Source: Membranipora membranacea (Eukaryota > Bryozoa > Gymnolaemata > Cheilostomatida > Membraniporidae). From it: a stretch of DNA of 64,000 nucleotides. The notes below the pieces were generated by a model. The model was not told where the DNA came from. It did no database searches and saw only the letters and a list, made by a program, of their open reading frames with translations. Position 1 is the first letter of the stretch, and each line of letters begins with the position of its first letter. Location: the NCBI GenBank assembly GCA_914767715.1, contig OU612066.1:31842283-31906282 (forward strand). Direction: 5' to 3'. The position numbers were made by a program, and so were the translations under genes. Below, piece by piece: positions 4,711 to 30,882 of this stretch.

Positions 4711-4733
4711 GATAATAGATTTGTCCTGGAAAT

Positions 4734-4751
4734 GTACTCGCTTCGCTTCGT

Positions 4752-4791
<40 letters not shown>

Positions 4792-5243: not shown

Positions 5244-5295
5244 ATCGGGAGCCTCACTTAATTTGTTATTTTAATATTCGAAATAAAAAATACTC

Positions 5296-5380
5296 GACTC
5301 CGGTGGGATTCGAACCCACAACCTTCAAATCTCATCTAACCACTAGAAGTCTGACGCGCTATCCATTGCGCCACGGAGCC
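5296..5380 (-). tRNA. tRNA-Arg(UCU), intron-containing, copy 2
   Basis: Identical over its 85 nt to the copy at 2182-2266, same strand, including the intron. It lies about 55 bp from the end of the G-rich minisatellite. Confidence 0.95.
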
Positions 5381-5564
5381 AGTTGATAAAATAGAAAAAT
5401 ATAAGCTGACATAACAATAAACAATAAATAGCTGCTTTTAGTACCTCCTGTTGCTTGATCATAGAGTTGTAAGTCTATAATTGGCACTGATCCATGACTG
5501 GAGTTTGCTGCGGTGGAACTGTCAAAGCTGCTGTTTATAATGTATTGTCTTTGTTTCGTTTCAG

Positions 5565-5696
5565 ATGTAGATGAATGCGTGGAGGTATTGAATGCCTGTA
5601 CATTTGGTCAATGTGTCAACGAAAGGGGTTCTTACTACTGCAAATGTCCTGAGAACTTTGTCCAGAGCTTCGATGGGGACAAATTCAAATGCATGG
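5565..5696 (+). CDS. Fibrillin exon: calcium-binding EGF domain 1 of window
   Basis: Acceptor tttcag at 5561-5564 after a pyrimidine-rich tract; donor GG|gtatgt. It encodes DVDEC...[13 protein letters not shown]...C, with six cysteines, the D-x-D-E calcium motif and the Asn and aromatic residues of cbEGF modules. Phase 1 at both ends. It starts mid-protein, so at least one upstream exon lies outside the window. Confidence 0.9.
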
Positions 5697-11600: not shown

Positions 11601-14600
11601 TTGGCCCTGGTTTTGATAGCACTGGCCAAGGTGCGTATTAGAAGCTTTCAAAAGTGATTTTCTGATTTTACCAAGTAGTCCAACACTCAATGGTAGCAAA
11701 ACTAAGCCACCAATGAGGATCGAACTCATGACCTCCTGTTTACTAGACAGGCGCTCTAGCCACTGAACTATGGCGGCTGAATTGACACTAGGGTGAGACA
11801 ACTCTGAAATGAATTTTGGCACATTATAAGGGTTTGTGCTGCCAATCTGGTGCCAGCAGCTTTGTTCCACAGGCAGCTAAAGCCAGAGCCTCCGTTACTC
11901 AATAGTGAATCCAGATAATGTCTGTCGTTAGAGGGGTTTATGTGTGGTGTGCAAAGTTATGGTCTCTAAGGCTCTGGGCAGGCTGCTTGACAGAAATACC
12001 CCATGTCTTTTATACCACGACCTTGAAACACCATTATGCAGTAGGTTATGTATCTGCTTGACAACAATGGGATTGCCTGACAAATTTGCTACCAAAGAGG
12101 TAATTAAAATTAGTCCGGGCCTCTGAATATTCTTCTATTGGGACTGAATGAATTCACATTTATTTCATTCATCTCAGTCCTCAGACTCTCTCACACGCCA
12201 GTCAACGGGCCTCCCAAGCATTCATACGACATGTGACATACGGTTAAAGGGTGATTATGTGATTGACACCTTGTATGGCTAAATCTTGTGGGAAAAGAGG
12301 ACGGCTCTAGTAGCAGAGAAGTTATGAAGTTTTTTTATTGCCTAATTCTAATATCAATCCTGTAGTAGGTCGATAGCATCAAAAGTATGGCACAAAAGAA
12401 GAGGAAAAAGAAATTAAAAAATGAGACTGAGCTGCATTAGTTGAAAAATTGCATTTAAAACTAAAAAAATGTTCTCAAAAGGGAGCCTGTTTATAGACAT
12501 TTAGGTCAACAGTTTGGCCAGAGACTATAGATATAGAGACCTTCCACTTGCCATGATAACGTATATAACCGATGCGAACACATTGAAAATTAGGCTCCGC
12601 CCCTTTCTGGTGGTAATTGCTTGGAGGTAAGCGTACCCAGTGCTATGAATTTACTATCAAAAATTGACAAGGTGAATGATTTAGCTGTTTATTTTATAAG
12701 TACATTCACACAAAACTCTCAATAATATCAACTGGGACAAATGAAATCTAAGATGTGCGACTTTTATATAAAATATAGGTATCAAGGAAACAAAATACTT
12801 GGTGGATGACCTTTTGGTAATGTAGCCCCCATATGTATAGAAAATTGAGTATTCAATGTGAAAATAGTTAAATGTGAACAAGCACTGATGTTATATTCTC
12901 CAGTTCCGGTGACTGAATTGAATTCATCAGTTAGGTCAGCACAGAAACTTTCTATAGCATAGGTCTGAGAAAAGTATCATCCTCAAAAAGTCTTAAGTTT
13001 TCCCGTTTTAAGTCAGCATACTGCTGATTGTTGCCTGAAGATATGTGCTTTGAACTGCTCTGAATCTGTCTATGAAGCCCAAACAAGTTTTCAAGGCGAT
13101 TTGTAAAAATAAGCTTTCCATAGCCTCAACCATCCCACAATAACTTTGAGGCAGAGAGGGAGGTCTTCTATCTCTCAATGCAGTAAATTCTATACATTTG
13201 TCAGCATTGAATTGTCAGTATGAATCTGCTGACGATGCACTTTACTCTGATGCCATTCTTACTTCAGTTTTGAATGTGTGTGTATGGTTGGAACTAGTCA
13301 CCATGATTAAATTCTTTTATATTAATCTTAGAGCATATATTAACAAACAAAAAGAAGCCCTCTTCCTCTTGTCCTCACACATGAAAACTTTGTCCGTGAA
13401 ACTCATTACAACAGCTAACCTATGGCAGTGGGCAACAATGATGGATTATACTGCACAGCCCCCTTACTTTCTTACAAAAATACAGGCCTGTATAATATAA
13501 ATCTCTGGCTAAGAATGCAACAACAAGTTGATAGTGACTTTGTTGCTGTCTGATCTGGTTTTGTCATCAAGATTGTGGTTATTTTGCCTCAAATAACTCA
13601 GGTGAAAAACCTGAAATTTTATTGAGAAAGCCATTGCTGTCTAAGGCAGCAGCGCTTACTATACAACCAGAAGTGGGCGTGACTGTTAAATAACGCTGAT
13701 TGGCTATTCGCATTTTATGCGCAAGTGGAAGGTCTCTATATCTATAGTCTCTGGTTTGGCTCTGAAATAACCAGGGAGGTATGGTAAAACTAAGCCACCA
13801 ATGAGGATCGAACTCATGACCTCCTGTTTACTAGACAGGCGCTCTAGCCACTGAGCTATGGCGGCTGTGATATGCCCATTGCAAAACAACACTTTACTGA
13901 TTTATACCTTTATTGATTTTAGCCTTATAATCACTGGTAAAATGCATGAATAGCAAGCAGTTCATTGTGTACTTTAGCATGACTGCCAAACTGTGATAAT
14001 ATCAGATACCACAAAATTCAGTGAGTTGTGGCACTAGTTTTGATCATGAACACGATGTATGGTCCTCACTCCTGATGACATGATCTTAGAAAATACTGCA
14101 AAATTAACATTGTAAATAATGACCACAACAGCTTGCAAATCGCAGACTGGTGCAGTTGAAACCTTGGACATTAGCCAGTACCTAATTGTAGGCTTGGGTT
14201 GTTTGCTAGGTCAAAATAGTCAGATACCGGTTGTTAGCTGTAAACCATCAGTCCGAACAGACAAAGCCATTTGAGTTGCAGGGACCCATATGCTAGATAA
14301 AACAAGGGAAACTGATCATAAGTCCCTAGAGTATGTGGTGAGTCGCCTGCTATTTGGAAGATGATTATCATCTAACTAACCAGTAGCATTAGATCACTGT
14401 GAAAGGCATCCTTGCAATGTACCTAGTTTCAGTCGTTGTAGTCCAGTAGAACTTGAGAAAGTACCCATTTTATGCATGTTCGTTTTTGTAATAATCAAAC
14501 CCTATCCTTTGCCTATCTGCAGTCTGCCATGCAACCAAAAGTATGTTGTCATGCATTCTGCAACCTCACTACAGTAGCAATATCATATAATCTATGTTAT

Positions 14601-17600
14601 GTTGGAAATTCAACAACAATCCCTCCCCATCCAAGCATCCGTAAATCTCCCAACTGTTATGCACACAGCCTTGATGTATGCCTAAATCACATGACACAAT
14701 ATTCAACTTAGCAATGAATATATAGAGATATAGAATACTAAATTAATTTTATGACAGATATTACGAGTAGTAGTTAAGTTAGTAAAATAATGATGGGTCA
14801 TAATTAAATAATAGTTTAGATTTATTTATATTTCTACATGTATATATAGATAAAGATATCTTTTCACTATAACAAGTATACTTAATGAACAATCTATCGA
14901 TTCTTCTCGTAATTTGTTATCCCTAACGCAATAAATGTGCAAAAAATAACGCTGTACATCATTATTATACCGATGATTTCAAAAGAAGATATGTATCTCG
15001 GAGCACACTAGAAAATCTTCAAAATTCACTAATCACTGTCCTGATTATTTTATGCAGATATTGATGAATGCTCGTTAATGCCAAATGTTTGCGGAAATGG
15101 ACGCTGTCTTAACACTATGGGGAGTTATCGCTGTGTGTGCGATGATGGATACAAAGTGGGACCCTCCGGTAAAGAATGCATTGGTGAGTCCTTACCCTGT
15201 CTCATGTGGTTATCACTGACGATGAATGGGTGAAGGGTCGGCAAATGAAAAGCAATATTGGGGATAGTCTTACAAACCAGTATGTAAGATTCGCTTTCAA
15301 TATAGCAGATGTAACATGCATTCACCCGCATTGCGAGGGTGTGATATTATCCCCGACAGCAGCGCAGGATTGGCCAAGTTGTGTGCACATGCTAAAAAAG
15401 GACACAACTCCAATATGATTTATCTGAAATCATGAATAGACTACCCTTGAATGCCTATACCAAATACATAAGTTTGGTAGCATAGGAACTCTACATAAAT
15501 CAGGAGTGACAAAAACTTGTGCCTGAATTATCAGTATGGCTTATTTTACACATCCCTCAAGAGCTGGTAAAACTAACTGTTGTTAGCAGTATCATCTGCT
15601 TCAAATTGACTACCAACTTTTAGATGCTACCTGTAATAACCCTCTTTTTATAATTGTAAGGTCTTATTTTATTTTTATAATCATAAATACATCTCTTTCT
15701 CGTTTAGATGTGGATGAGTGCAGTCTGAGCGCGTCAATGTGTGATCAAAATTGTAGAAATTTGATAGGAAGCTTCCAATGTATCTGCACTGCTGGTTATA
15801 CCCTGGCAGCGGACGGCTCCTCATGTGATGGTAATGCTTCTGAATTTCATTGTGCTCATCCATTTTCAGCTGGCACAAAACCCAAATGCCCCTCTTCCGC
15901 TTCTTCAAAGAAAATCCCTCACAGAAGGGGTTGAAAAGTTTTTAAATTGATTCAATGTTTAGGCATTTGCAATTGACAGCTCTTTCAATGATTCTTGAAT
16001 CTTCCAGTATTGGCCTGTGAGTTGAGCTACCCCTGATAGAAGATGAGATAATTAACCAACTAATATTTAATTGACACTTGTCGACAAATGGCCTTAAAAA
16101 AATCCATCTACAGGCGAAGATAGCAACCTTATACAGTAAAAGCTGGTCAATTCAGACTTTATAATTCGGAACTCCTGTTAATTCAGGCAAGGAAAATTGG
16201 TCCCTTCAGCCAGATCTCAATGCATTCTAATGTCACTTAATTCAGATTCAGATTTTGAAGTGGAAGAATTAGCAATAAGGAAATGAATGATACAAATCCA
16301 GTGGCAGCTGAAAATTGATTTTGTGAATTTTTCTTGGCACTGGTAGTGCACACTTTGAATGAGCTTTTGACCATGTTATAGTTGTTTTACAAGCTTTTAA
16401 TGTTGATATTCCTTTTCTACACATATTCTTTGATTATAAAAGTTGTATTTCTCTAAATTGAAATTAAGAAATTTTTTTCCAAAATTAACCACTCCTTCTA
16501 CCTTAATTAGGACAAATTTTTCTGGACCCCAGAGGTTTAAACTAAGGGAACTGCACTGCATGCTTATACTAATTAGAATGTTACCATTATTTTACAGATG
16601 TAGATGAATGTCTGGACACCTCTTTTGAGTGTCCCCCTGATGCTATATGTCTGAACGAGGTTGGAGGCTACACCTGTGAATGTCCTGCCGGCTTCACAGC
16701 TGATAACCTCCTCTGTGTTGGTATGTAACAGTGTGTAATGAGACACCTGAGGATAAAACAATGTTGAAATTCCCATGACATATCATGACAATAACATGTT
16801 TCGAAGTGTCAGTAAAGACCATGTTTGGTACAGCTTTTAGCATCTCATATCAAGAGTAGAAACTATAAATCTGGCTTATGATCAAACCGCATACAGACTA
16901 CCAATGACTGACTAGTGGGATCCTAGTGAATCATACAGTCATCATAACTTCTGCTGACAACTATGATCCTAGCTCTTAGCTATGATTCTAGTACCCGCCC
17001 GGCCTGCACCCCCAACCCAAGTGATCTGTACACTCATGTGTCAAATTTAGAGTTATTTTCCCAACTCCCCAAATTCTGTAATGTTATGTATTCGATTTAA
17101 CGGAAGGTAGACCAAGCTTGGTGAGTTTGCCTGCATTTGGAGATGATTCCCCTCCACTGGTGACCAGTGGAGGGGGATCAACTGGTATGCAAGCAAACTG
17201 GATCAAACTTGTTCTACACAGAAGGTTAATAACTGACACTGGTATCTGGTCACTGTTGTAGATCTGAATGAATGCCGATACGAAGGCACATGTGGCCTCG
17301 CAGACTGTATTAATATATACGGAAGTTATGAATGCTCATGCCGATACATCGGTGGTCGATACAACACTTACGACAAACGCTGTGAAGATGGTCAGTATTG
17401 TAAAATATCGAAAAATTAACAACTCATGAAATATGAAATGCGTCAAAAGAGATATTTTCAAGTCAGCTGATTTTGGTGTTGATACTCATTCAGATGGGAG
17501 AGCTATTGTAGGAATTTATCATGTTAGATGATAGTTTGGAAGTTTGCGTGTAGCCCATTAATTTTACAACATCGAATATACCGGCTTAAAAAGTAGAAAT

Positions 17601-20600
17601 GACAATTACAGGGTCACCAATATCATTTTAAAGAGCTCAAAGAGCTATACTATCTTGTGGGTTCACAATATGCTGACAAATTCTGTGAGATCTTAAGAAT
17701 CTTTTGCAAAAATGATTTTCAATTTTGCAGTTGTCCCTCAACCACAGGCTCCAAGTCTGCAGTTGAGGCAATAAGCTTAGAAATGATATCAAATCTTAAA
17801 ATATCTAGTATCATCTTATCTTAGTATTGAATTTTTTGGTATTTTTAAATCATAACCTTTTTTCCTAATAAATCGGTAGTTTTACTTTAAAAGCACAGTG
17901 AGAAGACACATTTTGTTTTTGCAGCTCATACAGAGCTTGAGTGATGACAACTTCATAGGGGTGGATGGAGGCACTTTTCTATTTGATTTGCAGTACTGTA
18001 ATACTGATCTATTCTTTCATATTCTTTTTTATTGCACACTAAAATTTGATCTTTGTTTTACAGATGATGGCAATGTAATACTCAGGCCAAGCCGGCCTGG
18101 TTCTGGTGACCTAACAGATGGTAGGCCAGCTGGTAGGCCTGAAGGTGGACCAGGAGGCGGACCAGGTGGATTCCCAGGAGGCGGACCAGGAGGATTCCCC
18201 GGAGGCGGACCAGGAGAATTCCCCGGAGGCGGACCAGGCGGATTTCCTGGAGGTGGACCAGGAGGCGGACCAGGAGGATTCCCAGGTGGTGGACAAGGTG
18301 GATTCCCAGGCGGTGGACCAGGTGGATTCCCAGGAGGTGGACCAGGAGGATTCCCCGGAGGTGGACCAGGAGGGTTCCCCGGAGGTGGACCAGGTGGATT
18401 CCCAGGCGGTGGACCAGGTGGATTCCCAGGAGGTGGACCAGGAGGGTTCCCCGGAGGTGGACCAGGTGGATTCCCAGGCGGTGGACCAGGTGGATTCCCA
18501 GGAGCTGGACCAGGTGGAATCCCCGGAGGCGGACCAGGAGGCTTCCCCGGAGGCGGACCAGGAGGATTCCCCGGAGGTGGACCAGGAGGTAGACCAGATG
18601 GTGGACCAGGAGGATTCCCCGGAGGTGGACCAGGTGGATTCCCAGGAGGTGGACCAGGTGGATTCCCAGGCGGTGGACCAGGTGGATTCCCAGGAGGTGG
18701 ACCAGGTGGATTCCCAGGCGGTGGACCAGGTGGATTCCCAGGAGGTGGACCAGGTGGATTCCCCGGAGGTGGACCAGGAGGATTCCCCGGAGGTGGACCA
18801 GGAGGTAGACCAGATGGAGGACCAGGAGGATTCCCCGGAGGCGGACCAGGAGGCTTCCCCGGAGGCAGACCAGGTGGATTCCCCGGAGGCGGACCAGGTG
18901 GATTCCCAGACGGTGGACCAGGTGGATTCCCAGGAGGCGGACCAGGTGGATTCCCAGGCGGTGGACCAGGTGGATTCCCAGGAGGTGGACCAGGAGGGTT
19001 CCCAGGAGGTGGACCAGGTGGATTCCCTGGAGGTGGACCAGGAGGTAGACCAGATGGAGGACCAGGTGGATTCCCCGGAGGCGGACCAGGTGGATTCCCC
19101 GGAGGTGGACCAGGAGGCTTCCCCGGAGGCGGACCAGGAGGCTTCCCCGGAGGCGTACCAGGAGGATTCCCCGGAGGTGGACCAGGTGGATTCCCAGGAG
19201 GTGGACCAGGTGGATTCCCAGGCGGTGGACCAGGTGGATTCCCAGGAGGTGGACCAGGTGGATTCCCAGGAGGTGGACCAGGAGGGTTCCCAGGAGGTGG
19301 ACCAGGTGGATTCCCCGGAGGTGGACCAGGAGGATTACCCGGAGGTGGACCAGGAGGTAGACCAGATGGAGGTCCAGGAGGATTCCCCGGAGGCGGACCA
19401 GGAGGCTTCCCCGGAGGCGGACCAGGTGGATTCCCCGGAGGCGGACCAGGAGGATTCCCCGGAGGTAGACCAGGTGGATTCCCAGGAGGTGGACCAGGTG
19501 TATTCCCCGGAGGTGGACCAGGAGGCTTCCCCGGAGGCGGACCAGGAGGTTTCCCCGGAGGCGGACCAGGAGGATTCCCCGGAGGTGGACCAGGAGGTAG
19601 ACCAGATGGTGGACCAGGAGGATACCCCGGAGGTGGACCAGGTGGATTCCCAGGAGGTGGACCAGGTGGATTCCCAGGAGGTGGACCAGGTGGATTCCCC
19701 GGAGGTGGACCAGGAGGATTCCCCGGAGGCGGACCAGGAGGCTTCCCCGGAGGCGGACCAGGAGGCTTCCCCGGAGGCAGACCAGGAGGCTTCCCCGGAG
19801 GCGGACCAGGAGGCTTCCCCGGAGGCGGACCAGGTGGATTCCCCGGAGGTGGACCAGGCGGTGGACCAGGTGGATTCCCAGGCGGTGGACCAGGTGGATC
19901 CCCCGGAGGTGGACCAGGTGGATTCCCCGGAGGTGGACCAGGAGGTAGACCAGATGGAGGATCAGGTGGATTCCCTGGAGGTGGACCAGGAGGGTTCCCC
20001 GGAGGCGGACCAGGAGGATTCCCAGGCGGCGGACCAGGAGGATTCCCTGGAGGCGGACCAGGAGGTAGACCAGATGGTGGACCAGGAGGCTTCCCCGGAG
20101 GCGGACCAGGTGGATTCCCCGGAGGTGGACCAGGAGGCTTCCCCGGAGGCGGACCAGGAGGTAGACCAGATGGAGGACCAGGAGGATTCCCCGGAGGCGG
20201 ACCAGGAGGATTCCCAGGCGGCGGACCAGGAGGATTCCCTGGAGGCGGACCAGGAGGTAGACCAGATGGTGGACCAGGAGGCTTCCCTGGAGGCGGACCA
20301 GGTGGATTCCCCGGAGGTGGACCAGGAGGCTTCCCCGGAGGCGGACCAGGAGGTAGACCAGATGGAGGACCAGGAGGATTCCCCGGAGGCGGACCAGGAG
20401 GCTTCCCCGGAGGCGGTCCAGGTGGATTCCCCGGAGGCGGACCAGGAGGATTCCCCGGAGGCGGACCAGGAGGTAGACCAGGTGGTGGACCAGGAGGATT
20501 CCCCGGAGGCGGACCAGGTGGATTCCCCGGAGGTGGACCAGGAGGCTTCCCCGGAGGCGGACCAGGAGGTAGACCAGATGGAGGACCAGGAGGATTCCCC

Positions 20601-23600
20601 GGAGGCGGACCAGGAGGCTTCCCCGGAGGCGGTCCAGGTGGATTCCCCGGAGGCGGACCAGGAGGATTCCCCGGAGGCGGACCAGGAGGTAGACCAGGTG
20701 GTGGACCAGGAGGATTCCCCGGAGGCGGACCAGGTGGATTCCCCGGAGGTGGACCAGGAGGCTTCCCCGGAGGCGGACCAGGAGGTAGACCAGATGGAGG
20801 ACCAGGAGGCTTCCCCGGAGGCGGACCAGGAGGTAGACCAGATGGAGGACCAGGAGGATTCCCTGGAGGCGGACCAGGAGGCTTCCCCGGAGGCGGACCA
20901 GGAGGCTTCCCCGGAGGCGGTCCAGGTGGATTCCCCGGAGGCGGACCAGGAGGATTCCCCGGAGGCGGACCAGGAGGTAGACCAGGTGGTGGACCAGGAG
21001 GATTCCCCGGAGGCGGTCCAGGTGGATTCCCCGGAGGCGGACCAGGAGGATTCCCCGGAGGCAGACCAGGAGGTAGACCAGGTGGTGGACCAGGAGGATT
21101 TCCCGGAGGCGGACCAGGTGGATTCCCCGGAGGTGGACCAGGAGGCTTCCCCGGAGGCGGACCAGGAGGTAGACCAGATGGAGGACCAGGAGGATTCCCC
21201 GGAGGCGGACCAGGAGGCTTCCCCGGAGGCGGTCCAGGTGGATTCCCTGGAGGCGGACCAGGAGGATTCCCCGGAGGCGGACCAGGAGGTAGACCAGGTG
21301 GTGGACCAGGAGGATTCCCCGGAGGCGGACCAGGAGGATTCCCCGGAGGTGGACCAGGTGGATACCCAGGTGGCGGACCAGGAGGATTCCCAGGAGGATA
21401 CCCAGGAGGCGGACCAGGCGGTAGACCAGAGGGAGGTAAGTAATTGAATTGAATTGAATTACCTCTCCTATGTATCACATTATGAATTGCTGCTTGTACC
21501 TTGATACCTTGATCATTCACCCTATTCGAATAACTAAAGTTCTGTTTTTCACTAACAACAGCACTCAAAAATGAAATTTGCCATCATATACGACGGGTAA
21601 TATTGATGGTAGGCTAAAATTTGGACATGGTAATTTTAGGAAATACCCTGATTCAAAGGTGCTCTTACGTCCAATTTGTTGAAATCATGTAACTGCATGA
21701 TATAAATAGCTCAAAACTGATCTAACCACAACTGGCAACTGACTGATCCTTATCAGAACGCTGTAAATTGTACAATACCATGTGAATCAGTCCCATAAAC
21801 CTCAAAACTTTGCCTCAACTCCTACCTCAGTCTATTAAAAGACTACACAATATTGATGCATGCCATAGTTATGTAGGATTCGCATACGCCAAAATTGCAA
21901 ACCTCCTCTTGGCGTGAATAATTGATGATAGACAGAGTTTTCACCATCATGGAGGGTTACTGCATTATGATGTTACTTCCCAATATTTGTGTGTGGCTGA
22001 GGCCGCTAACAATTGGTTCTTGCATGTGATGATAAGATTGACGATATACCAAAATAAACAAACCATCCTGGGTATTGTAGTTGGTGGAGCGTGCTAGGCG
22101 TAAGCTTGATACCCACTGAGGGAATAAATTGTCATGCATTTTATGCAATACAATATTACAATATAGTAACTGTAACTATGTTGCCATAACCTAACCTGCA
22201 TAGTCCAACCAGAGACTATAGATATAGTCTCTGGTCCAACTCATCTTTCATAGGTTAAAGTAGCATACAACCACATAAGTTAAATTTGATATTTGATGCA
22301 TAATGATGTACTCCTTGTAATTTTGAATGTGTTATTAATAACCATGAATTCGAAAATTTTAATTATTTCAATTCCTAACTCTCTTCAAGGAGTTAGAGAC
22401 TTTAACTCCTTGCTCTCTTCAACCATTGTTTCAGTAACAGGCATACCCAAGATGATTGGCCAATTGATGAACACTCTCAAAAATATGTATGAAAGTATTT
22501 GCTTCTAGAATTAAGGCAGTTATCTTTCAGTTGTTTCAATCATAATACTTGAACAGGGATCTCAATTACTTAATAGCCTACACAAACAGTTATTGCTTTC
22601 AGTAATAAGAAAATAAGCATTTTCTATGAGATAATTCATACTGACTCTCGTGATCTGACTGGGCATGTATATCACTGATAAACTAGGCTATCATTACCAC
22701 AAAGCAGGTGTCGTAAGGCTAAGTATGCATCATGCGTGACTTGAATTTGCGCATGTGCAAGAACAACGAGTTTAGTTTGGGTTCTGATTGCAACTTTGGA
22801 AAGGGGAAATGGGATATCCCCTGCATAAACTGTCAATCAAAATCAGCTAATAATGATAAGAGAGGATAACTGTTAATAACAAATCCGCACGCTTTGGGGA
22901 ATATGTCACCAGAGCAGGTAGCCAATCAGATGGCTTCGGAATTCCGAGACTCAATTTTGCAGAGATCAGCTCATGCCCAGAGCTGAGCATGCGCAGAATG
23001 GAGATAATTAACAAAACAAAGCTTCCCGATTTAATTCAGTTTATTGCAGCCATTGAGTTGAGGAACTGCTGACTGCCCTGCAGTGCAGAACCAGAGCTGT
23101 TACCTTGGATTTTCATTGTTGAGTATGCTGCCTACCTGAGAAGGCAAATTAAAAGTTGATCTATATTTAGTGGTGCCAGGGTTGAATGTTACTTTAAGCT
23201 CAGAATTTCTCAGATTATAATAATTTTAACAATTTATCTATCTTCATCATCAGAGCATAGGATTGATTTGCCAAATGGGTGATTACAGTGTGAGTTAATA
23301 TTGCCCTGTCACTCGACTCCAGGGCAGTTAAAGAATGCTGAAGTTGGGTTTACATTAGGAAAAAGCCATGCCAAATTAAGCAGGTTTGTTAAATAGACCT
23401 ACTTTTCTGCTATGCTATAAGTGTTGTTTGATGGTCCTAGAGGATTGTTGATCAATTTTGGAAACACTTTCTTGCCATACTAGTCATCTGGCTGAAAATC
23501 CTTGGAAATTCTGAGCTTTGAAATAATTATCCACCACCATTGAATTTTCTACCACCATTGAATTCCGTGTCTGGAATAGCATCATTAGCTTTTATTTTGC

Positions 23601-26600
23601 CAAACAATGGGCTTGCAAAAATAGCCAGTCCCTAGTAGCATTCTATAAAAGCCCAAATCATTGACATTGAAGGCATTATATTACCATTTGTAGTTTTGTC
23701 ATCAGTCAATTTCCCAGGCTATATTATTCATGCTAGTAGGGACAGCCAATCTGATCAATGTCAGATGAGTCCCTGTGTTGTGTATTCTATCGGGATGATG
23801 TTATTATGATATTTCCATTACATGAGAAAAATTTAAATCAGTGTCTACCACATATATCTGCTGTAAATGGCGATCAGCTGGCATAATGGATTTCCAAAGT
23901 ATTCAAGTTTTGAACATTTTTCTGATCCCAAATATTATATATATGAAAAAGCCAATTCTAGGGTTAATGAATTTTCCTTTGAAAGTTACAAATTTCTACC
24001 TTTCCCAATTGGTTAGTAAAGCACTGAAAAGAGCTCAAAGCATATGAATATTAGTTTTCAATTTCCCCAGTATTGAAGAACAGATAACATTCAAATTCAT
24101 TTTTTGCAATGAAATGCACTCTGGTGGATGATTCCATACAGGTGATGTTCACCACTTGTGAAGCAACCATAATCTTATAATCTTTCTATCAACTCAGCCG
24201 TAGTACACACATGCTTCTCTGTATGGTTTTTCACTCACAACTTCTTGGCTAATTTGTCAATCACCTTCTTTCTTTCACATACCCGGCAATGTCTCAAATT
24301 ACATATGTTATATAATGTTACATATGTTATACAATGTTACATATGTTGTACAATGTTACATATTTTATAACTTTTGCGGATGGAAGCCACTAACTTCCTG
24401 AGATGAAGCCAGATAAAAAATGCTCCTCTCCATTTTGTTAATTGCTTACTTTTATGGCTCCCTGCAGGTCACATGACTTGTCACAACGCAAAGTTATTTC
24501 AGTCTGATGAAAGTATTGGCCGTTGTGATAAAGCTTTCATGGTAGCGATAAAGATAGCTTAGGAAACTAATCTTGAGCTATTCTACAAACTTCAGGAATT
24601 TCCATGTGCAACATACATCTATGTAGCACTAAAGTTATTACATTTACCTTAGAGATAATGTTGTGCTGGATTCTCCTAGCAATACTTGCATACATGCTCA
24701 ATCTTTATTCCATCATATGGACAGTTGTATAAGCTTGATAAGTTCCTCAAGAGTTGTAAAACCAACTATATGAAATATCTATGTGTTTAAGAAGTCCCTC
24801 AAGACCTTAGAATAATAAAATATCTATGTGTTGTATTATTTTAGGACAAGGCGGTTACCCAGCTTATCCTGGTGGAAGATTTCCCAATGGATCAGTAGTA
24901 CCTGATGGCTATCCAGGAGGACCAGGAGGATACCCAGATGGTGGACCAGGAGGATACCCAGGAGGCGGACCAGGAGGTTACCCAGGTGGTGGACCAGGAG
25001 GTTACCCAGGTGGTGGACCAGGAGGTTACCCAGATGGTGGACAAGGAGGTAGACCAGGAGGTTACCCAGGCGGAGGACCAGGAGGTTACCCAGGTGGTGG
25101 ACCAGGAGGTTACCCAGGTGGTGGACCAGGAGGATACCCAGATGGTGGACAAGGAGGTAGACCAGGAGGTTACCCAGGCGGAGGACCAGGAGGTTACCCA
25201 GGTGGTGGACCAGGAGGTTACCCAGGTGGTGGACCAGGAGGTTACCCAGGTGGCTATCCTGGTGGAAGATTTCCAAATGGATCAGTAGTGCCTGATGGCT
25301 ACCCAGGAGGACCAGGTGGTTACCCTGATGGAGTACCAGGAGGATACCCAGGCGGTGGACCAGGAGGTAGACCAGGTGGTGGACCAGGCGGATACCCTGA
25401 TGGTGGACCAGGTGGATTCCCAGGAGGATACCCAGGAGGCTATCCTGGTGGGAGATTTCCAAATGGATCAGTAGTGCCTGATGGCTACCCAGGAGGACCA
25501 GGTGGTTACCCTGATGGAGTACCAGGAGGATACCCAGGCGGTGGACCAGGAGGTAGACCAGGTGGTGGACCAGGCGGATACCCTGATGGTGGACCAGGTG
25601 GATTCCCAGGAGGATACCCAGGAGGCTATCCTGGTGGAAGATTTCCAAATGGATCAGTAGTACCTGATGGCTATCCAGGAGGACCAGGTGGTTACCCTGA
25701 TGGAGGACCAGGAGGATACCCAGGTGGTGGACCAGGAGGACACCCAGGAGGTAGACCAGGTGGTGGACCAGGAGGATACCCTGATGGTAGACCAGGAGGT
25801 TACCCAGGTGGTGGACCAGGAGGTTACCCAGGTGGCTATCCTGGTGGGAGATTTCCAAATGGATCAGTAGTGCCTGATGGCTACCCAGGAGGACCAGGTG
25901 GTTACCCTGATGGAGGACCAGGAGGATACCCAGGTGGTGGACCAGGAGGTAGACCAGGTGGTGGACCAGGAGGATACCCTGATGGTGGACCAGGAGGTTA
26001 CCCAGGTGGCTATCCTGGTGGAAGATTTCCAAATGGATCAGTAGTGCCTGATGGCTACCCAGGAGGACCAGGAGGATACCCAGGCGGTGGACCAGGAGGT
26101 TATCCAGGCAGTGGGCCAGGAGGAAGACCAGGTGGTGGACCAGGAGGATATCCAGATGGAGGACCAGGAGGTTATCCAGGTGGTGGACCAGGAGGAAGAC
26201 CAGGTGGCGGACCAGGAGGATACCCGGATGGTGGACCAGGTGGATACCCAGGAGGATACCCTGGTGGTGGACCAGGAGGATACCCAGGTGGTGGACCAGG
26301 AGGTTACCCAGGTGCCTATCCTGGTGGAAGATTTCCAAATGGATCAGTAGTGCCTGATGGCTACCCCGGAGGACCAGGTGGTTACCCTGACGGAGGACCA
26401 GGAGGATACCCAGGCGGTGGACCAGGAGGTAGACCAGGAGGTGGACCAGGAGGTTATCCAGGTAGTGGACCAGGAGGAAGACCAGGTGGTGGACCAGGAG
26501 GATATCCAGATGGAGGACCAGGAGGTTATCCAGGTGGTGGACCAGGAGGAAGACCAGGTGGCGGACCAGGAGGATACCCTGATGGTGGACCAGGTGGATA

Positions 26601-29600
26601 CCCAGGAGGATACCCTGGTGGTGGACCAGGAGGATACCCAGGTGGTGGACCAGGAGGTAGACCAGGTGGCGGACCAGGAGGATACCCTGATGGTGGACCA
26701 GGTGGATTCCCAGGAGGATACCCAGGAGGCTATCCTGGTGGAAGATTTCCAAATGGATCAGTAGTACCTGATGGCTATCCAGGAGGACCAGGTGGTTACC
26801 CTGATGGAGGAGCAGGAGGATACCCAGGAGGTAGACCAGGCGGAGGACCAGGAGGTTACCCAGATGGGGGACCTGGAGGATTCCCAGGAGGATACCCAGG
26901 TGGCTATCCTGGTGGAAGATTTCCAAATGGATCAGTAGTACCTGATGGCTATCCAGGAGGACCAGGTGGTTACCCTGATGGAGGACCAGGCGGTAGACCA
27001 GGTGGTGGACCAGGTGGATTCCCAGGAGGATACCCAGGAGGCGGACCAGGTGGTAGACCAGGTGGTGGACCAGGAGGTTACCCAGGTGGTGGACCAGGAG
27101 GTAGACCAGATGGTGGACCAGATGGTGGACCAGGAGGATACCCAGGTGGTGGACCAGGAGGATTCCCAGGAGGATACCCAGGCGGTGGACCAGGAGGTTA
27201 CCCAGATGCTGGACCAGGAGGTAAACCAGACGGAGGACCAGGAGGATACCCAGGTGGAGGACCAGGAGGTTATCCAGGTGGTGGACCAGGAGGTAGACCA
27301 GGTGGTGTACCAGGAGGTAGACCAGGTGGTGTACCAGGTGGTAGACCAGGAGGATACCCAGGTGGAGGACCAGGAGGTTACCCAGATGGTGGACCAGGAG
27401 TTAGACCAGGTGGTGGACCAGGAGGATTCCCAGGAGGATACCCAGATGGAGGACCAGGCAGTAGACCAGGTGGTGGACCAGGAGGATATCCAGGTGGAGG
27501 ACCAGGAGGTTTTCCGGGAGGAAGACCAGGAGGATACCCTGATGGTGGACCAGGCGGTTTCCCAGGAGGATATCCAGGTGGTGGACCAGGTGGATACCCT
27601 GATGGAGGACCGGGAGGGTACCCGGGAGGTGGACCAGGAGGTTACCCGGGCGGTGGACCAGGAGGATACCCTGATGGAAGACCAGGAGGTTACCCTGATG
27701 GAAGACCAGGAGGATACCCAGGTGGCGGACCAGGAGGTTACCCAGGTGGCGGACCAGGAGGATACCCAGATGGTGGACCAGGAGGTAGACCAGGTGGTGG
27801 ACCAGGAGGATACCCAGGAGGTGGACCAGGAGGATACCCAGGCGGCTATCCTGGTGGAACATTTCCAAATGGATCAGTAGTACCAGATGGCTATCCAGGA
27901 GGACTAGGTGGTTACCCTGATGGCGTACCTGGAGGTAGACCAGGCGGTGGACCAGGTGGATACCCAGGTGGCGGTCCAGGAGGTAGGCCAGGAGGTGGAC
28001 CAGGAGGAAGACCAGGTGGTGGACCAGGAGGATATCCAGATGGAGGACCAGGAGGTTACCCAGGTGGAGGACCAGGAGGTTATCCAGATGGTGGACCAGG
28101 AGGTTATCCAGGTGGTGGACCAGGAGGAAGACCGGGTGGTGGACCAGGAGGATATCCAGATGGAGGACCAGGAGGTTACCCAGGCGGAGGACCAGGAGGT
28201 TATCCAGGTGGTGGACCAGGAGGTTATCCAGGTGGTGGACCAGGAGGAAGACCAGGTGGTGGACCAGGAGGTTACCCAGATGGAGGACCAGGAGGTTACC
28301 CAGATGGTGGACCAGGAGGTAGACCAGGCGGAGGACTAGGAGGTTACCCAGGTGGTGGACCAGGAGGTAGACCAGATGGAGGACCAGGAGAATACCCAGG
28401 TGGCGGACCAGGAGGATACCCAGATGGTGGACAAGGAGGTAGACCAGGTGGCGAACCAGGAGGTTACCCAGGCGGAGGACCAGGAGGTTATCCAGGTGGC
28501 GGACCAGGAGGTTACCCAGGCGGAGGACCAGGAGGTTACCCAGGTGGTGGACCAGGAGGTAGACCAGATGGTGGACCAGGAGGATACCCAGGTGGTGGAC
28601 CAGGAGGATTCCCAGGCGGTCGACCAGGAGGTTACCCAGATAGCGGACCAGGAGGTAGACCAGGTGGTGGACCAGGGGGTGGACCAGGTGGATACCCAGG
28701 TGGTGGACCAGGAGGATATCCAGGTGGCGGACCAGGAGGATACCCTGATGGTGGACAAGGAGGTAGACCAGGTGGCGAACCAGGAGGTTACCCAGGCGGA
28801 GGACCAGGAGGTTATCCAGGTGGCGGACCAGGAGGTTACCCAGGCGGAGGACCAGGAGGTTACCCAGGTGGTGGACCAGGAGGTAGACCAGATGGTGGAC
28901 CAGGAGGATACCCAGGTGGTGGACCAGGAGGATTCCCAGGCGGTCGACCAGGAGGTTACCCAGATAGCGGACCAGGAGGTAGACCAGGTGGTGGACCAGG
29001 GGGTGGACCAGGTGGATACCCAGGTGGTGGACCAGGAGGATATCCAGGTGGCGGACCAGGAGGATACCCTGATGGAGGACCAGGAGGCAGACCTGGCGGT
29101 GGACCAGGAGGATACCCTAGTGGGAGTAATCCAGGTGGAGATGGTGTGAGTGGCTTCCCTGGAATTGATGACAACAATGATGGCAGTGAGAAGAGATGTG
29201 TAGATGAAGATTGTACATTTGGATGTGAAAGAACCTCCAATGGATTCTTCTGCAGCTGTCCACTGGGTTACCAACTTGTTGACAAAGGGTAAGTCTATTA
29301 CCACACTATTACTACCCGTCCAGGCCATTCCCACCATCAAGCATACCAACGAGAATACAAAAAATCTTGTAGAGAAGTCTGGGAATTGTTATGGCACTTT
29401 TGTCATAGGTTTTTATGGTATGAGGGATTATATTTTGAATTTCTCTTCTTCTAAAATACCATTTAAGACATAGAGATGTACACCCAAATTGTCATAAGTC
29501 AACTCTAGATGGTGTTACTTAATTAAATATTCAGCTCTTAGCGCTCGTATGCTATTTCCATACTATATTGTACCGATGCAATTATAGATTGAGTCAAATG

Positions 29601-30180
29601 CCTATATTGATATCATTTTATCAGTATCATTTTTCCTTTTTATTGCAGTCACTGCATAGCTACCATCAGTCCACCAGATGAGGAATATTTCAAAAACAAG
29701 CTCCCCCTGCCTCATGTACCATCTAGTCAAGGAAACAATCTCCCACTCGGAGAAGGATGCTGGTCGTGCGGTATAAGCCAAGTAGAGAAAGCTCAACTAG
29801 TAGAATCAGTGCGCAACCTTCGGGCTAGGTATCGAGTGAGAAGAGACCTTCGATCAGTTCTCGAGCGAACTAACATTGAGAAAATGCTGTCACAAGTCGT
29901 GGTGGTGAATGTGACTACTAATCAAACCGCTGTCAAAACTCACAATCATATCTTGAGTGTGGTGCAAGCTCATAAGCATATGCCAGGAGAAACCTACAAA
30001 ATATATGGAGACAATAGTCATAAGTTCAGTCTGGATCACTTTAACAACAATGAAGTTTTTTTGCAATTCAACCACAAGGTTACCAAATCGCGGGTCTTTA
30101 AACTTATCCTTCTTATTGCTGACGAAAGTAAACTAGAAAATCTTACATTACTTCCTGTTGAGGTTAGAGTGTATGCGTAG
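5565..30180 (+). CDS. Fibrillin-like extracellular matrix protein, 3' half of gene (spliced, 5' partial)
   Basis: Thirteen exons can be joined with consistent phase (mostly phase 1-1, usual for EGF modules): 5565-5696, 6219-6443, 6972-7097, 7375-7494, 7641-7853, 10348-10512, 11421-11630, 15058-15183, 15708-15830, 16598-16720, 17262-17390, 18064-21435, 24845-29288, plus the terminal exon 29649-30180. Order: cbEGF, TB, 5 cbEGF, TB, 4 cbEGF, Gly/Pro/Phe block, Gly/Pro/Tyr block, EGF, C-terminal propeptide. TB domains (8 Cys with a CCC triplet) occur in fibrillins and LTBPs; the C-terminus with a CWSC motif, a furin site and an asprosin-like domain is specific to fibrillin. TB-5 cbEGF-TB matches, from memory, the TB6-TB7 region of human fibrillin-1. 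The protein should be secreted and form microfibrils in the matrix. The first exon seen starts in phase 1, so the signal peptide and N-terminal half are upstream of the window. I did not assign FBN1/2/3 orthology. Confidence 0.9.
6219..6443 (+). CDS. Fibrillin exon: TB (8-Cys) domain 1
   Basis: A single phase 1-1 exon (acceptor gtttcag, donor G|gtaagt) encodes a complete TB/8-cysteine module: GLC, DLC, the CCC triplet followed by a conserved AW, then EC, SC and LC. Eight cysteines in TB spacing. No RGD integrin motif. TB modules occur only between cbEGFs in fibrillins and LTBPs, so this exon strongly supports the gene call. Confidence 0.92.
6972..7097 (+). CDS. Fibrillin exon: cbEGF domain 2
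   Basis: DIDEC start, six cysteines, [12 protein letters not shown] core with Asn and Phe of the calcium-binding consensus. Acceptor accag, donor G|gtatgt, phase 1-1. First of five cbEGFs between the two TB domains. Confidence 0.92.
7375..7494 (+). CDS. Fibrillin exon: cbEGF domain 3
   Basis: DKDEC start, [17 protein letters not shown] core, final Cys in GKC. Acceptor ttctag, donor G|gtaggc, phase 1-1. Confidence 0.92.
7641..7853 (+). CDS. Fibrillin exon: cbEGF domain 4 and most of cbEGF 5
   Basis: One exon holds a full cbEGF (DVDEC...[12 protein letters not shown]...C) and the first five cysteines of the next (DVDEC...[12 protein letters not shown]). It ends at PEG with donor G|gtatgt, before Cys6, so the second module is split by a 2.5-kb intron. 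This is the only EGF in the window, apart from the last one, that is divided between exons. Confidence 0.9.
8137..8208 (-). tRNA. tRNA-Glu(UUC)
   Basis: Minus strand TCCCAGGTGGTCTAGTGGTT, anticodon TTC in CGCTTTCACCG, T arm GGGGTTCGATTCCCC, acceptor closed by TCTGGGA. No intron. Lies in the fibrillin intron after exon 7641-7853. Confidence 0.95.
8893..9005. repeat. Hairpin MITE, 'TTTGATCCAGTTTGCCTG' family, copy 1
   Basis: Inverted ends: ACAAGTTTGAGCCACTTTAC on the left, complement ATCAAGCATGATCCAATTTG on the right. Inside a fibrillin intron; the most diverged of four copies. Confidence 0.6.
9807..9878 (+). tRNA. tRNA-Glu(CUC)
   Basis: Same body as the UUC gene but on the plus strand, with anticodon CTC (CGCTCTCACCG) and compensating stem changes. 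In the same fibrillin intron, in inverted orientation 1.6 kb away. The two decode the two Glu codons. Confidence 0.95.
10348..10512 (+). CDS. Fibrillin exon: end of cbEGF 5 plus cbEGF domain 6
   Basis: Acceptor gtcaaag|GGTTTC at 10341-10347 keeps phase 1 and yields [12 protein letters not shown], supplying Cys6 of the split EGF. A nearby ttcag at 10351-10355 would give an in-frame stop and was rejected. It continues DVNEC...[12 protein letters not shown]...C and ends at donor G|gtgaga. The acceptor lacks the usual pyrimidine-AG context right before the exon but follows a run of eight T. Confidence 0.85.
   Translation, partial: GFRKCRDMKTNVMMLMNAERTHLCVRMVDVSTRKAAFDVNVILGTPLLQIKSLV
10896..10968 (-). 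tRNA. tRNA-Arg(ACG)
   Basis: Minus strand GGCCTCGTGGCCCAATGGAT, anticodon ACG in CTGACTACGAATCAG, T arm CCAGGTTCGAGTCCTGG, acceptor CGGGGTC. A T-rich run follows (gaagctttt read on the plus strand side). Confidence 0.95.
11421..11630 (+). CDS. Fibrillin exon: TB (8-Cys) domain 2
   Basis: Phase 1-1 exon (acceptor gtttgtag, donor AAG|gtgcgt). Eight cysteines: GLC, GFC, the CCC triplet, then AAWGPAC, RC and MC. It is the last TB of the protein and, by position, the likely counterpart of the most C-terminal fibrillin TB. Flanked by tRNA-Arg(ACG) and tRNA-Thr genes in the adjoining introns. Confidence 0.92.
11704..11778 (-). tRNA. tRNA-Thr(AGU), copy 1
   Basis: Minus strand AGCCGCCATAGTTCAGTGGC, anticodon AGT in CCTGTCTAGTAAACAGG, T arm with GTTCGATCC, acceptor GGTGGCT. 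TTTT stop just downstream (AGTTTTGC). Confidence 0.95.
12518..13754. mobile_element. 1237-bp DNA element with perfect 34-bp TIRs, CCAGAGAC family
   Basis: The left TIR at 12518-12551 and right TIR at 13721-13754 are exact inverted repeats, beginning CCAGAGACTATAGATATAG and including CCTTCCACTTGC. Flanked by 5-bp direct repeats TTTGG (12513-12517, 13755-13759). The longest frame inside is 100 codons (13198-13500) with no recognisable transposase, so it is probably non-autonomous. 5-bp duplications do not match the common 2-, 3-, 4- or 8-bp superfamilies; Transib makes 5 bp but has different termini. Lies in a fibrillin intron. Confidence 0.8.
13792..13866 (-). tRNA. tRNA-Thr(AGU), copy 2
   Basis: Same as the 11704-11778 gene except one D-arm base (CAGTGGC preceded by AGCT rather than AGTT), with a TTTT stop (AGTTTTACC). 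It starts 33 bp beyond the target duplication of the 1237-bp TIR element. Confidence 0.95.
15058..15183 (+). CDS. Fibrillin exon: cbEGF domain 7
   Basis: DIDEC start, [17 protein letters not shown] core, last Cys in KEC. Acceptor atgcag, donor G|gtgagt, phase 1-1. Confidence 0.92.
15708..15830 (+). CDS. Fibrillin exon: cbEGF domain 8
   Basis: DVDEC start, [16 protein letters not shown] core, last Cys in SSC. Acceptor gtttag, donor G|gtaatg, phase 1-1. Confidence 0.92.
15831..16597. other. Fibrillin intron, possible pogo-like MITE remnant
   Basis: Begins TACAGTAAAAGCTGGTCAATTC at 16133 and ends near CTAAGGGAACTGCACTG at 16558; the left end resembles pogo/Tc1-type termini, but the right end matches only weakly. 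Weak call. Confidence 0.25.
16598..16720 (+). CDS. Fibrillin exon: cbEGF domain 9
   Basis: DVDEC start, [12 protein letters not shown] core, last Cys in LLC. Acceptor tttacag, donor G|gtatgt, phase 1-1. Confidence 0.92.
17107..17217. repeat. Hairpin MITE, same family, copy 2
   Basis: Left end GTAGACCAAGCTTGGTGAGT, right end complement GTAGAACAAGTTTGATCCAG, with a central CCACTGGT/ACCAGTGG palindrome. Immediately 5' of the exon at 17262. Confidence 0.7.
17262..17390 (+). CDS. Fibrillin exon: cbEGF domain 10
   Basis: DLNEC start, [12 protein letters not shown] core, then a somewhat long C5-C6 loop ([13 protein letters not shown]). Acceptor ttgtag, donor G|gtcagt, phase 1-1. Last EGF before the repetitive exons. 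Confidence 0.88.
18064..21435 (+). CDS. Fibrillin giant exon A: Gly/Pro/Phe octapeptide repeat
   Basis: A single 3,372-nt exon (1,124 codons, phase 1-1; acceptor gttttacag, donor G|gtaagt) with no stop. After a lead of about 30 residues (start [13 protein letters not shown]) it is built of a 24-nt unit coding GGPGGFPG, about 135-140 copies, broken at intervals by GRPDGG or GRPGGG. In the 3' part these interruptions fall every 96 nt (for example at 20064, 20160, 20256 and 20352), a four-unit higher-order repeat. No Cys and no Lys. The GPGGX motif resembles flexible spider flagelliform silk and elastin-like sequences, so a disordered, extensible spacer is the likely role (inference). The downstream exon continues the frame. 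Confidence 0.85.
22209..22234. mobile_element. 26-bp minimal palindrome, CCAGAGAC family
   Basis: The element is two 12-bp termini (CCAGAGACTATA and its complement) joined by 2 bp, flanked by perfect 5-bp direct repeats TCCAA (22204-22208, 22235-22239). It equals the ends of the 1237-bp element with nothing in between. Confidence 0.75.
22386..22412. mobile_element. 27-bp palindromic micro-insertion, CARGGAGTT family, copy 1
   Basis: Inverted arms CAAGGAGTTA and TAACTCCTTG with a 7-bp centre, flanked by perfect 7-bp direct repeats CTCTCTT (22379-22385, 22413-22419). Confidence 0.75.
24299..24370 (+). repeat. 20-bp AT-rich tandem repeat
   Basis: Roughly 3.5 copies of TTACATATGTTATACAATG in the intron before giant exon B. 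Confidence 0.8.
24845..29288 (+). CDS. Fibrillin giant exon B: Gly/Pro/Tyr repeat plus start of last EGF
   Basis: A 4,444-nt exon (acceptor attttag, donor GG|gtaagt, phase 1-2) without stops. It uses GGPGGYPG in place of the Phe version, mixed with YPDGG and GRPGGG. Ten times it contains a non-repetitive marker, [13 protein letters not shown] (once GTFPNG), near 24871, 25258, 25444, 25630, 25840, 26011, 26320, 26731, 26905 and 27850, defining long higher-order units. It ends with SGSNPGGDG, an acidic linker and an EGF start (RCVDEDC..GC..FFCSC) completed in the next exon. Tyr-rich and nearly Lys-free, so dityrosine rather than lysyl-oxidase cross-links would be expected (inference). Confidence 0.87.
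29649..30180 (+). CDS. Fibrillin terminal exon: end of EGF, furin site, asprosin-like propeptide
   Basis: Phase 2 acceptor (tattgcag) joins to give GHC, the last EGF cysteine. Next come a spacer, then GEGCWSCGI (compare the paired cysteines before the processing site in vertebrate fibrillin) and YRVRR, an R-x-R-R furin-type site ending at 29844. The remaining 111 residues (29845-30177) resemble the fibrillin C-terminal propeptide/asprosin: an IEKM..VVVVNVT strand, a [17 protein letters not shown] segment and a hydrophobic end. N-glycosylation sequons NVT, NQT and NLT are present. Stop TAG at 30178-30180. Human asprosin is longer (140 residues). Confidence 0.88.
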
Positions 30181-30661
30181 AACATTAGTGAATTATTGTA
30201 TTTATAGATTTCTTCAGTCAGTTTGTATCAAAATATTTTGGTTGCATGCATGTCTATCACACTACAATCTTTTACTACTAGCGAGCCAAACTTTTATGCC
30301 AAAATCATGCATGCAATAGTTGCAAAGAATTTTACTTTTCAATTTTTCATACAGATTTCTTTGGATTTCCTGTTGAAATCTCATAGCAAATAGCTTCATG
30401 TTTTGTTTGAGAATAGCGGATTATTATGGTGGATGTAGTAGTACCACTTTGTCACAAATTTTTTCCAAAGCCTTGTGAATCCAATTTTCCCTCCTCCAGT
30501 TATATTTATCATCATTTTTATCTGCAGGAATTTAGCTGAGATTGTCAGAATTAACTACTTGTGAATTATAGTATATTACAAAGTCAGATATTATTGTCAT
30601 TAATGACTGTTATTACATTGCTAGTTGTTCAAACTTTGCCAATTAAAAAGCTAGAAAATGT

Positions 30662-30795
30662 AATCTACCGCATACACAATCTACCGCATACACAATCTAC
30701 CGCATACACAATCTACCGCATACACAATCTACCGCATACACAATCTACCGCATACACAATCTACCGCATACACAATCTACCGCATACACAATCTA
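30662..30795 (+). repeat. 16-bp minisatellite in fibrillin 3' region
   Basis: About 8.4 copies of AATCTACCGCATACAC, nearly exact, about 480 bp past the fibrillin stop codon; probably in or after the 3' UTR. Confidence 0.9.
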
Positions 30796-30882
30796 CTACC
30801 GAGCATCATGAGCTAGCTAGTGTGTCTTCTGTGCAAACTATCCTCACTATACAATCAGAACATTGTACTAATACTATTCAAT

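What the first reader, a model, noticed from the sequence alone, without database searches (positions are those of the whole stretch)
18064..29288. A fibrillin with its own silk/elastin-like block of ~2,600 residues
Two giant exons, each phase-compatible with fibrillin EGF exons, insert about 1,124 codons of GGPGGFPG repeats and about 1,440 codons of [18 protein letters not shown] repeats between the cbEGF array and the last EGF plus C-terminal propeptide. Seen directly: the frame is open across both exons and joins cleanly on both sides. Known: vertebrate fibrillins have only a short Pro- or Gly-rich region near the N-terminus, and elasticity comes from separate elastin deposited on fibrillin; GPGGX repeats make flagelliform silk extensible. 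Inference: this animal may have fused an elastomer into its microfibril protein, with one Phe-type and one Tyr-type (dityrosine-capable) segment and almost no Lys.
Basis: partly seen in the sequence, partly recalled or inferred. Interest (0 to 1): 0.88.

Follow-up and report, generated by a model that had tools for sequence, protein, structure and literature searches.

The report
Sea-mat fibrillin with built-in elastomer
A colonial sea animal carries the gene for the elastic-fibre scaffold protein fibrillin with about 2,550 residues of silk-like repeats built into it just before its tail end, so that scaffold and rubber may be one molecule.

Summary
Two giant exons (18064-21435, 1,124 codons, GGPGGFPG type; 24845-29288, 1,481 codons, [18 protein letters not shown] type) sit in frame between the penultimate and the last EGF of a fibrillin gene. 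It is a real fibrillin: upstream DNA gives the N-terminal unique domain, EGF1-3, two hybrid and seven TB domains; its N-terminus matches fibrillin-1 (PDB 5ms9) at E 6e-55. The array is coding: neighbouring copies differ at about 32% of third codon positions but 4-15% of first and second. Exon 2 carries five of the six cysteines of the last EGF; skipping it gives a stop after Val-Thr-Ala, while exon 1 can be skipped in frame. All 48 matches of a repeat query to the genome lie in these exons. All 11 chromosome lengths match the bryozoan Membranipora membranacea. Best reading: a microfibril protein with an integral entropic spring, Tyr- rather than Lys-cross-linkable. Expression, elasticity and orthologues are untested: no RNA or other animal genome was available and the protein database was off. 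New variant of a known kind.

The parts
5565..5696 (+). cbEGF exon (phase 1-1)
   Evidence: Pfam EGF_CA on the joined exons
6219..6443 (+). TB (8-Cys) domain exon, sixth TB of the gene
   Evidence: Pfam TB
6972..7097 (+). cbEGF exon
7375..7494 (+). cbEGF exon
7641..7853 (+). exon with one cbEGF and most of the next
10348..10512 (+). exon completing that cbEGF plus another cbEGF
11421..11630 (+). TB domain exon, seventh and last TB
   Evidence: Pfam TB E 2e-9
15058..15183 (+). cbEGF exon
15708..15830 (+). cbEGF exon
16598..16720 (+). cbEGF exon
17262..17390 (+). cbEGF exon, last EGF before the inserted block
18064..21435 (+). giant exon 1: 1,124 codons of [12 protein letters not shown] repeats, phase 1-1 (could be skipped in frame)
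   Evidence: no Pfam family
24845..29288 (+). giant exon 2: about 1,420 codons of [18 protein letters not shown] repeats with 10 NGS sequons, then the first five cysteines of the last EGF; phase 1 in, phase 2 out, needed for the frame of the last exon
29649..30180 (+). last exon: sixth Cys of the last EGF, CXXC (CWSC), furin-type RVRR, C-terminal propeptide, stop
   Evidence: sequence; no Pfam family, only weak PDB matches, nearly all to EGF proteins

Best explanation
This is the fibrillin gene of a bryozoan, almost certainly Membranipora membranacea, in which two exons place about 2,550 residues of Gly/Pro-rich repeats between the EGF/TB rod and the last EGF plus C-terminal processing domain. 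Shown: gene anatomy, open frame with third-position variation, splice phases, a frame that needs exon 2, repeat matches at one locus only. Inferred: the protein is secreted and cut at RVRR, joins microfibrils through its canonical rod and ends, and the disordered block works as an entropic spring in series between the rod and the C-terminal part. By a worm-like-chain estimate the block rests at about 30 nm and could be drawn out to about 0.9 um. The Phe half would supply hydrophobic self-association and the Tyr half, with 134 Tyr and almost no Lys, the sites for dityrosine-type rather than lysyl-oxidase cross-links. Skipping exon 1 could tune the spring length; exon 2 would be present in every full-length fibrillin.
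For: Canonical fibrillin order, read from predicted exons and open frames: N-terminal PNVCG...CCPGW domain, EGF1-3, hybrid 1, TB1, TB2, hybrid 2, TB3, about 12 EGFs, TB4, 2 EGFs, TB5, EGFs, TB6, 5 cbEGFs, TB7, 4 cbEGFs, block, last EGF, CXXC, RVRR. PDB: fibrillin-1 5ms9 E 6.3e-55 over EGF2-hybrid 1-cbEGF1 and 2m74 E 7.7e-25 over the N-terminal unique domain and EGFs. Third-position pattern. Stop after Val-Thr-Ala if exon 2 is skipped. 48 of 48 matches of a 90-residue repeat query in 339 Mb lie in these exons (the tool says its counts are lower bounds). Gly+Pro 84% and 75%; high Pro+Gly content is linked to disordered, hydrated elastomers (PMC5703643 passages; PMC6168590 passages). Chain estimate.
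Against: No transcript, peptide or mechanical data. The C-terminal domain has no Pfam match and only weak PDB matches, nearly all to EGF proteins, so it is assigned by position and motifs. The exon with signal peptide and N-terminal furin site was not found. Several upstream EGF exons were read as open frames without a clean predicted exon, and TB2 was joined by hand from two open frames. Only 5 EGFs follow the last TB, against 7 in human fibrillin-1 (recalled). Exon 1 holds five internal AGs with a pyrimidine tract at the low end of the modelled acceptors' range, so splicing inside it is not excluded. Gly/Pro-rich repeats are not always elastic.
Confidence: 0.62

Rival explanations
1. The block is made as part of fibrillin but is a disordered, hydrated spacer or adhesive/cohesive segment (gel, hydration layer, cuticle or substrate contact) and not a load-bearing spring.
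For: Regular NGS sequons and Asp/Arg in exon 2 suit a hydrated, perhaps glycosylated coil; Gly-rich 'silk-like' proteins occur in many other animal materials such as shells, byssus and nematocysts (PMC4944945 passages).
Against: It sits in series inside a family of elastic-matrix proteins; very high Pro+Gly content is typical of elastomers.
Confidence: 0.2
2. Exons 18064-21435 and 24845-29288 are mostly used by another transcript or minor isoform (for example a separate Gly-rich matrix protein from an internal promoter), and bulk fibrillin lacks most of the block.
For: Exon 1 is phase-symmetric and can be skipped in frame and has weak internal AGs; no RNA data here.
Against: Skipping exon 2 truncates fibrillin before its last EGF and propeptide; the last EGF is encoded on the same exon as the array, and no AG in 29000-29230 has a pyrimidine fraction above 0.50, against 0.61-0.83 for the 14 modelled acceptors.
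Confidence: 0.12
3. A coding minisatellite that has drifted to large size as tolerated junk in a flexible linker, without a mechanical role.
For: Recent local duplications: exact repeats of at least 300 nt inside both exons; 48-nt and 186-nt higher periods.
Against: Differences concentrate in third positions in both exons, Phe and Tyr units are kept apart, no frameshift or stop in 7.8 kb.
Confidence: 0.1
4. Assembly or contamination artefact.
For: Long tandem arrays are prone to assembly error (general knowledge).
Confidence: 0.03

Closest known systems
Vertebrate fibrillin-2 and -3 glycine-rich 'unique region'
   Same: Gly/Pro-rich, cysteine-free stretch inside a fibrillin (PMC3306419 passages)
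   Different: There it is short (length recalled) and follows TB1 near the N-terminus; here about 2,550 residues, tandemly repeated, near the C-terminus, while the next exon found after TB1 carries an EGF, as the paper reports for invertebrates
Invertebrate single fibrillins
   Same: Domain order, no unique region seen after TB1, no RGD in the third and fourth TB as read, 8-Cys hybrid 2, CXXC and furin motif in the tail
   Different: No giant repeat block is described in the passages read of PMC3306419
Flagelliform spider silk (GPGGX)
   Same: GPGGX-type repeat units
   Different: No spidroin domain among the Pfam matches of the pieces scanned; embedded in a matrix glycoprotein; X is Phe or Tyr followed by Pro
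Resilin (GGRPSDSYGAPGGGN repeats)
   Same: Gly/Pro/Tyr/Arg/Asp-rich, Lys-poor, candidate dityrosine chemistry (repeat quoted in PMC4455251 passages)
   Different: No chitin-binding domain among the Pfam matches; different repeat; inside a fibrillin
Elastin
   Same: High Gly+Pro, expected disorder and entropic recoil
   Different: No Lys-rich cross-linking blocks; part of the scaffold protein and not a separate protein laid on it
Silk-like structural proteins (SilkSlider survey)
   Same: That survey lists fibrillin among broadly distributed 'silk-like' proteins (PMC4944945 passages)
   Different: The passages read describe no block of this size or place

Membership tests
Fibrillin | N-terminal unique domain with four cysteines followed by non-calcium EGFs | tested here: met
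   PNVCGTVGNQHCCPGW...; PDB 2m74 fibrillin-1 E 7.7e-25
Fibrillin | First hybrid domain | tested here: met
   5ms9 fibrillin-1 E 6.3e-55, collinear over EGF2-hybrid 1-cbEGF1
Fibrillin | Seven TB domains plus a second hybrid domain in the usual order | tested here: met
   Whole-genome TB search: 8 matches, 7 on C2 in this gene, one of which I read as hybrid 2; the remaining TB (TB2) was read from two open frames joined by hand and is Pfam-positive. Order compared with recalled human order.
Fibrillin | Long arrays of cbEGF exons | tested here: met
   38 EGF-type candidate exons in C2:31792401-31859672 (only phase 1-1 exons were enumerated, so phase is assumed there); Pfam EGF_CA
Fibrillin | C-terminal CXXC and RX(K/R)R after the last EGF (PMC3306419) | tested here: met
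   CWSC, then RVRR 25 residues on, in 29649-30180; the domain itself has no Pfam match
Fibrillin | Seven cbEGFs after the last TB, as in human fibrillin-1 (recalled) | tested here: not met
   Four plus the last one were found, the block before the last; I do not count this as a defining feature of the family
Fibrillin | Signal peptide and N-terminal furin site | tested here: inconclusive
   First exon not identified in about 12 kb upstream
Fibrillin | Assembly into beaded microfibrils | not testable with these tools
   -
Spidroin (flagelliform) | GPGGX-type repeats | tested here: met
   101 GPGGFPG in exon 1, 51 GPGGYPG in exon 2
Spidroin (flagelliform) | Spidroin N- and C-terminal domains | tested here: not met
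   None among Pfam matches of exon 1, exon 2, the last exon and the upstream pieces scanned
Elastin | Lys-rich cross-link blocks | tested here: not met
   0 Lys in exon 1, one Lys inside the array of exon 2
Resilin | Tyr-bearing Gly/Pro repeats | tested here: met
   134 Tyr in exon 2, commonest spacing 8 residues (57 of the spacings)
Resilin | Chitin-binding domain | tested here: not met
   None among the Pfam matches of the pieces scanned

The most novel reading that the evidence does not exclude
A one-molecule elastic fibre: an animal outside the elastin-bearing vertebrates built the rubber into the scaffold, so that each fibrillin carries a hydrophobic (Phe) and a Tyr-cross-linkable extensible segment in series between its rod and its C-terminal assembly domain. 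Such microfibrils would be stretchy by design, perhaps serving the flexing colony walls or membranes of a bryozoan that encrusts kelp.
Probability: 0.5. Interest if true: 0.85.

Novelty: new variant of a known kind. Interest (0 to 1): 0.73.

Why it matters
Vertebrate elastic fibres are a two-part system, with elastin deposited on fibrillin microfibrils, and animals with fibrillin but no elastin pose the question of where their long-range elasticity comes from. A fibrillin with an integral elastomer would be a second answer, an evolutionary fusion of scaffold and rubber, and a natural design for one-chain elastic biomaterials. It also gives a precise test: compare the same exon position in other bryozoan and lophotrochozoan fibrillins.

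Tried and rejected
Phage collection: none for the last exon and for a transposon ORF. No orthologue test was possible.

Rejected: non-coding minisatellite; a repeat found elsewhere in the genome; two freely skippable exons; cephalochordate or vertebrate origin (no RGD in the third and fourth TB as read); sponge or cnidarian origin, which I first suspected (two troponin matches over the cut-off; then equal chromosome sizes).

In print: searches 'fibrillin'+'GPGG' (4 papers; only the scallop byssus paper looked near and its passages, describe another protein), 'fibrillin'+'silk-like'+'cnidarian'+'glycine-rich' (9 papers), 'fibrillin'+'dityrosine'+'invertebrate'+'resilin', 'fibrillin gene'+repeat terms, and the wider ones gave listings, several cut at 12-25 rows, in which I saw no fibrillin of this kind; this covers only the open-licence papers held. 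The Flustra bryozoan genome paper has no 'fibrillin' in its main text.

Not done: structure prediction (a disordered repeat would give no usable model); alignment with a full human fibrillin.
Full report
What is there. The + strand of the window carries the 3' part of a large gene. Fourteen exons from 5565 to 30180 join in frame with one stop at the end (the join was one base off at 29289 and was corrected). Eleven are EGF or TB exons, two are giant repeat exons (18064-21435 and 24845-29288), one is the terminal exon (29649-30180). Both giant exons have GTAAGT donors, and acceptors with pyrimidine fractions of 0.72 and 0.67, inside the range 0.61-0.83 of the 14 modelled acceptors.

The array is translated sequence. 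TRF finds 24- and 48-nt periods along both exons and 186-nt units in part of the second. Comparing each array with itself shifted by one 24-nt unit, in stretches at least 70% alike and without choosing units by their protein, 3.7, 6.5 and 32.5% of first, second and third codon positions differ in exon 1 (2,868 sites) and 9.3, 15.4 and 31.5% in exon 2 (2,781 sites). Third positions differ most at each of the ten shifts tested in both exons; the order of positions 1 and 2 is reversed only at shift 12 in exon 2. (An earlier count, picked units by their protein motif and so was biased; I do not use it.) Neither exon has a stop in the gene's frame. Other frames are open too over long stretches, as such repeats often are; the flanking exons and the codon-position pattern choose the frame.

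Composition. Exon 1: 59.5% Gly, 24.6% Pro, 110 Phe, 3 Tyr, no Lys. Exon 2: 51.5% Gly, 23.4% Pro, 134 Tyr, 25 Phe, 53 Arg, 62 Asp, ten NGSV sequons, three Lys of which one is in the array. Two of the three Tyr of exon 1 lie at its end, residues 1,100 and 1,112 of 1,123, which suggests one ancestral array divided by an intron (inference).

It is a fibrillin. The window is C2:31842283-31906282 of a 339,339,785-base genome. A TB-family search of the genome gave 8 matches, all over the cut-off: seven on C2 between 31798190 and 31853878 and one on C6. I fetched the upstream DNA and found 38 EGF-type candidate exons in 31792401-31859672, a PNVCG...CCPGW N-terminal domain, EGF1-3, hybrid 1, TB1, a TB2 read from two open frames, an 8-Cys hybrid 2, TB3, TB4 and TB5. 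Pfam calls TB in six of six TB and hybrid-2 pieces given (five, TB1), besides TB6 and TB7. Three EGFs that I count were read as open frames: for two no exon fitted my splice rule and for one only oddly long ones did, so the EGF numbers are approximate. The assembled N-terminus matches fibrillin-1 structures 5ms9 (E 6.3e-55) and 2m74 (E 7.7e-25) collinearly; the rod before the block matches LTBP-1 best and fibrillin-1 second. No Gly/Pro region was seen after TB1 and no RGD in the third and fourth TB as read, both as reported for non-chordate fibrillins (PMC3306419, passages read). The terminal exon supplies the sixth cysteine of the last EGF, CWSC and RVRR, matching the CXXC and furin motif that the paper calls conserved. 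Against this, the terminal domain has no Pfam family, its PDB matches are weak and nearly all to EGF proteins, and I did not find the first exon.

Place of the block. After the last TB come four cbEGFs, the two giant exons and the last EGF. Human fibrillin-1 has seven cbEGFs there (recalled), so two are missing or were lost. No further EGF exon was seen in the three frames of 15825-18070 or of the intron between the giant exons. Exon 2 encodes the first five cysteines of the last EGF. Joining exon 1, or 17262-17390, directly to the last exon gives Val-Thr-Ala-stop. Of 563 internal AGs in exon 2, one (29256) has a pyrimidine tract in the range of the modelled acceptors, and it lies inside the EGF, which starts at 29194; of 419 in exon 1, five reach 0.61. 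So a complete fibrillin needs exon 2, while exon 1 is phase-symmetric and could be alternative in whole or part.

Is the repeat elsewhere? A 90-residue repeat query gave 48 matches in the genome, all 48 in these two exons (109 candidates scored; the tool warns that counts are lower bounds).

Which animal. Contigs C1-C11 have 41.07, 39.53, 35.04, 35.00, 29.96, 29.39, 28.51, 27.17, 25.74, 24.42 and 23.37 Mb; C12-C17 are 10-36 kb; C18 is a 14,741-base contig whose frames under table 5 read by eye as COX1, COX2, CYTB, ND and ATP6 genes. Table 2 of the sea mat genome note lists the same 11 sizes, total 339.4 Mb; its text counts 21 scaffolds where 18 contigs are held here (PMC10290214, passages read), and its abstract gives a 14.7-kb mitochondrial genome (listing). 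Troponin matches support a bilaterian. Membranipora membranacea is a cheilostome bryozoan. That its colonies encrust and flex with kelp is recalled; the sequenced colony grew on Undaria pinnatifida.

How it most likely works. Shown: anatomy, codon-position pattern, phases. From the literature: fibrillins form extensible microfibrils (abstract of PMC5639267 in the listing); high Pro plus Gly content keeps chains disordered, hydrated and able to recoil (PMC5703643, PMC6168590, passages read). Inference: the block is an entropic spring in series with the EGF/TB rod, close to the C-terminal assembly and processing domain. For 2,546 residues at 0.36 nm and 0.5 nm persistence the contour is 917 nm and the rest length about 30 nm (the parameters are assumed). 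With almost no Lys, lysyl-oxidase links within the array are unlikely; Tyr at 8 residues in the commonest spacing makes dityrosine plausible but untested.

Novelty. Fibrillins with Gly- or Pro-rich unique regions are known in vertebrates, and one survey lists fibrillin among Gly-rich silk-like proteins across taxa (PMC4944945, passages read). In the listings of my searches I saw no fibrillin with a long elastomer block; open-licence papers only. I call it a new variant of a known kind. The animal's own automatic annotation, which I could not see, may already contain it unremarked.

Limits. No RNA, no protein, no orthologue. The protein database was switched off and no relatives of this genome are held.

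Noticed in passing
window 1435-4841: Five U6 snRNA matches over the Rfam threshold, all on the + strand, in the long stretch between two fibrillin exons found (C2:31835809 and 31847847); three score above 110 bits.
   Followed up: no
window 2180-13866: Seven tRNA genes (two Glu, two Thr, one Arg, two undetermined by ARAGORN) in stretches between fibrillin exons.
   Followed up: no
window 51147-57663: LTR-type element: 798-base direct repeats at 99.4% identity flank two long ORFs, the second with a weak aspartyl-protease match below the Pfam cut-off; it looks young.
   Followed up: partly
window 41030-46958 and 58102-64000: A segment of about 5.9 kb present twice, about 17 kb apart, at about 98% identity, the second copy reaching the window end.
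   Followed up: no
C6:1236000-1276300 minus strand (L033, L034, L018, L019, L038): A second TB-containing locus: two TB-like open frames and an EGF pair resembling the pair after TB5 of this fibrillin, followed on the same strand by a long series of EGFs of another type; my filter for Gly/Pro repeats showed none in the 90 kb read.
   Followed up: partly
window 30655-30800: Short tandem array of a 16-base unit (ctaccgcatacacaat) in the 3' flank of the fibrillin gene, seen by eye.
   Followed up: no
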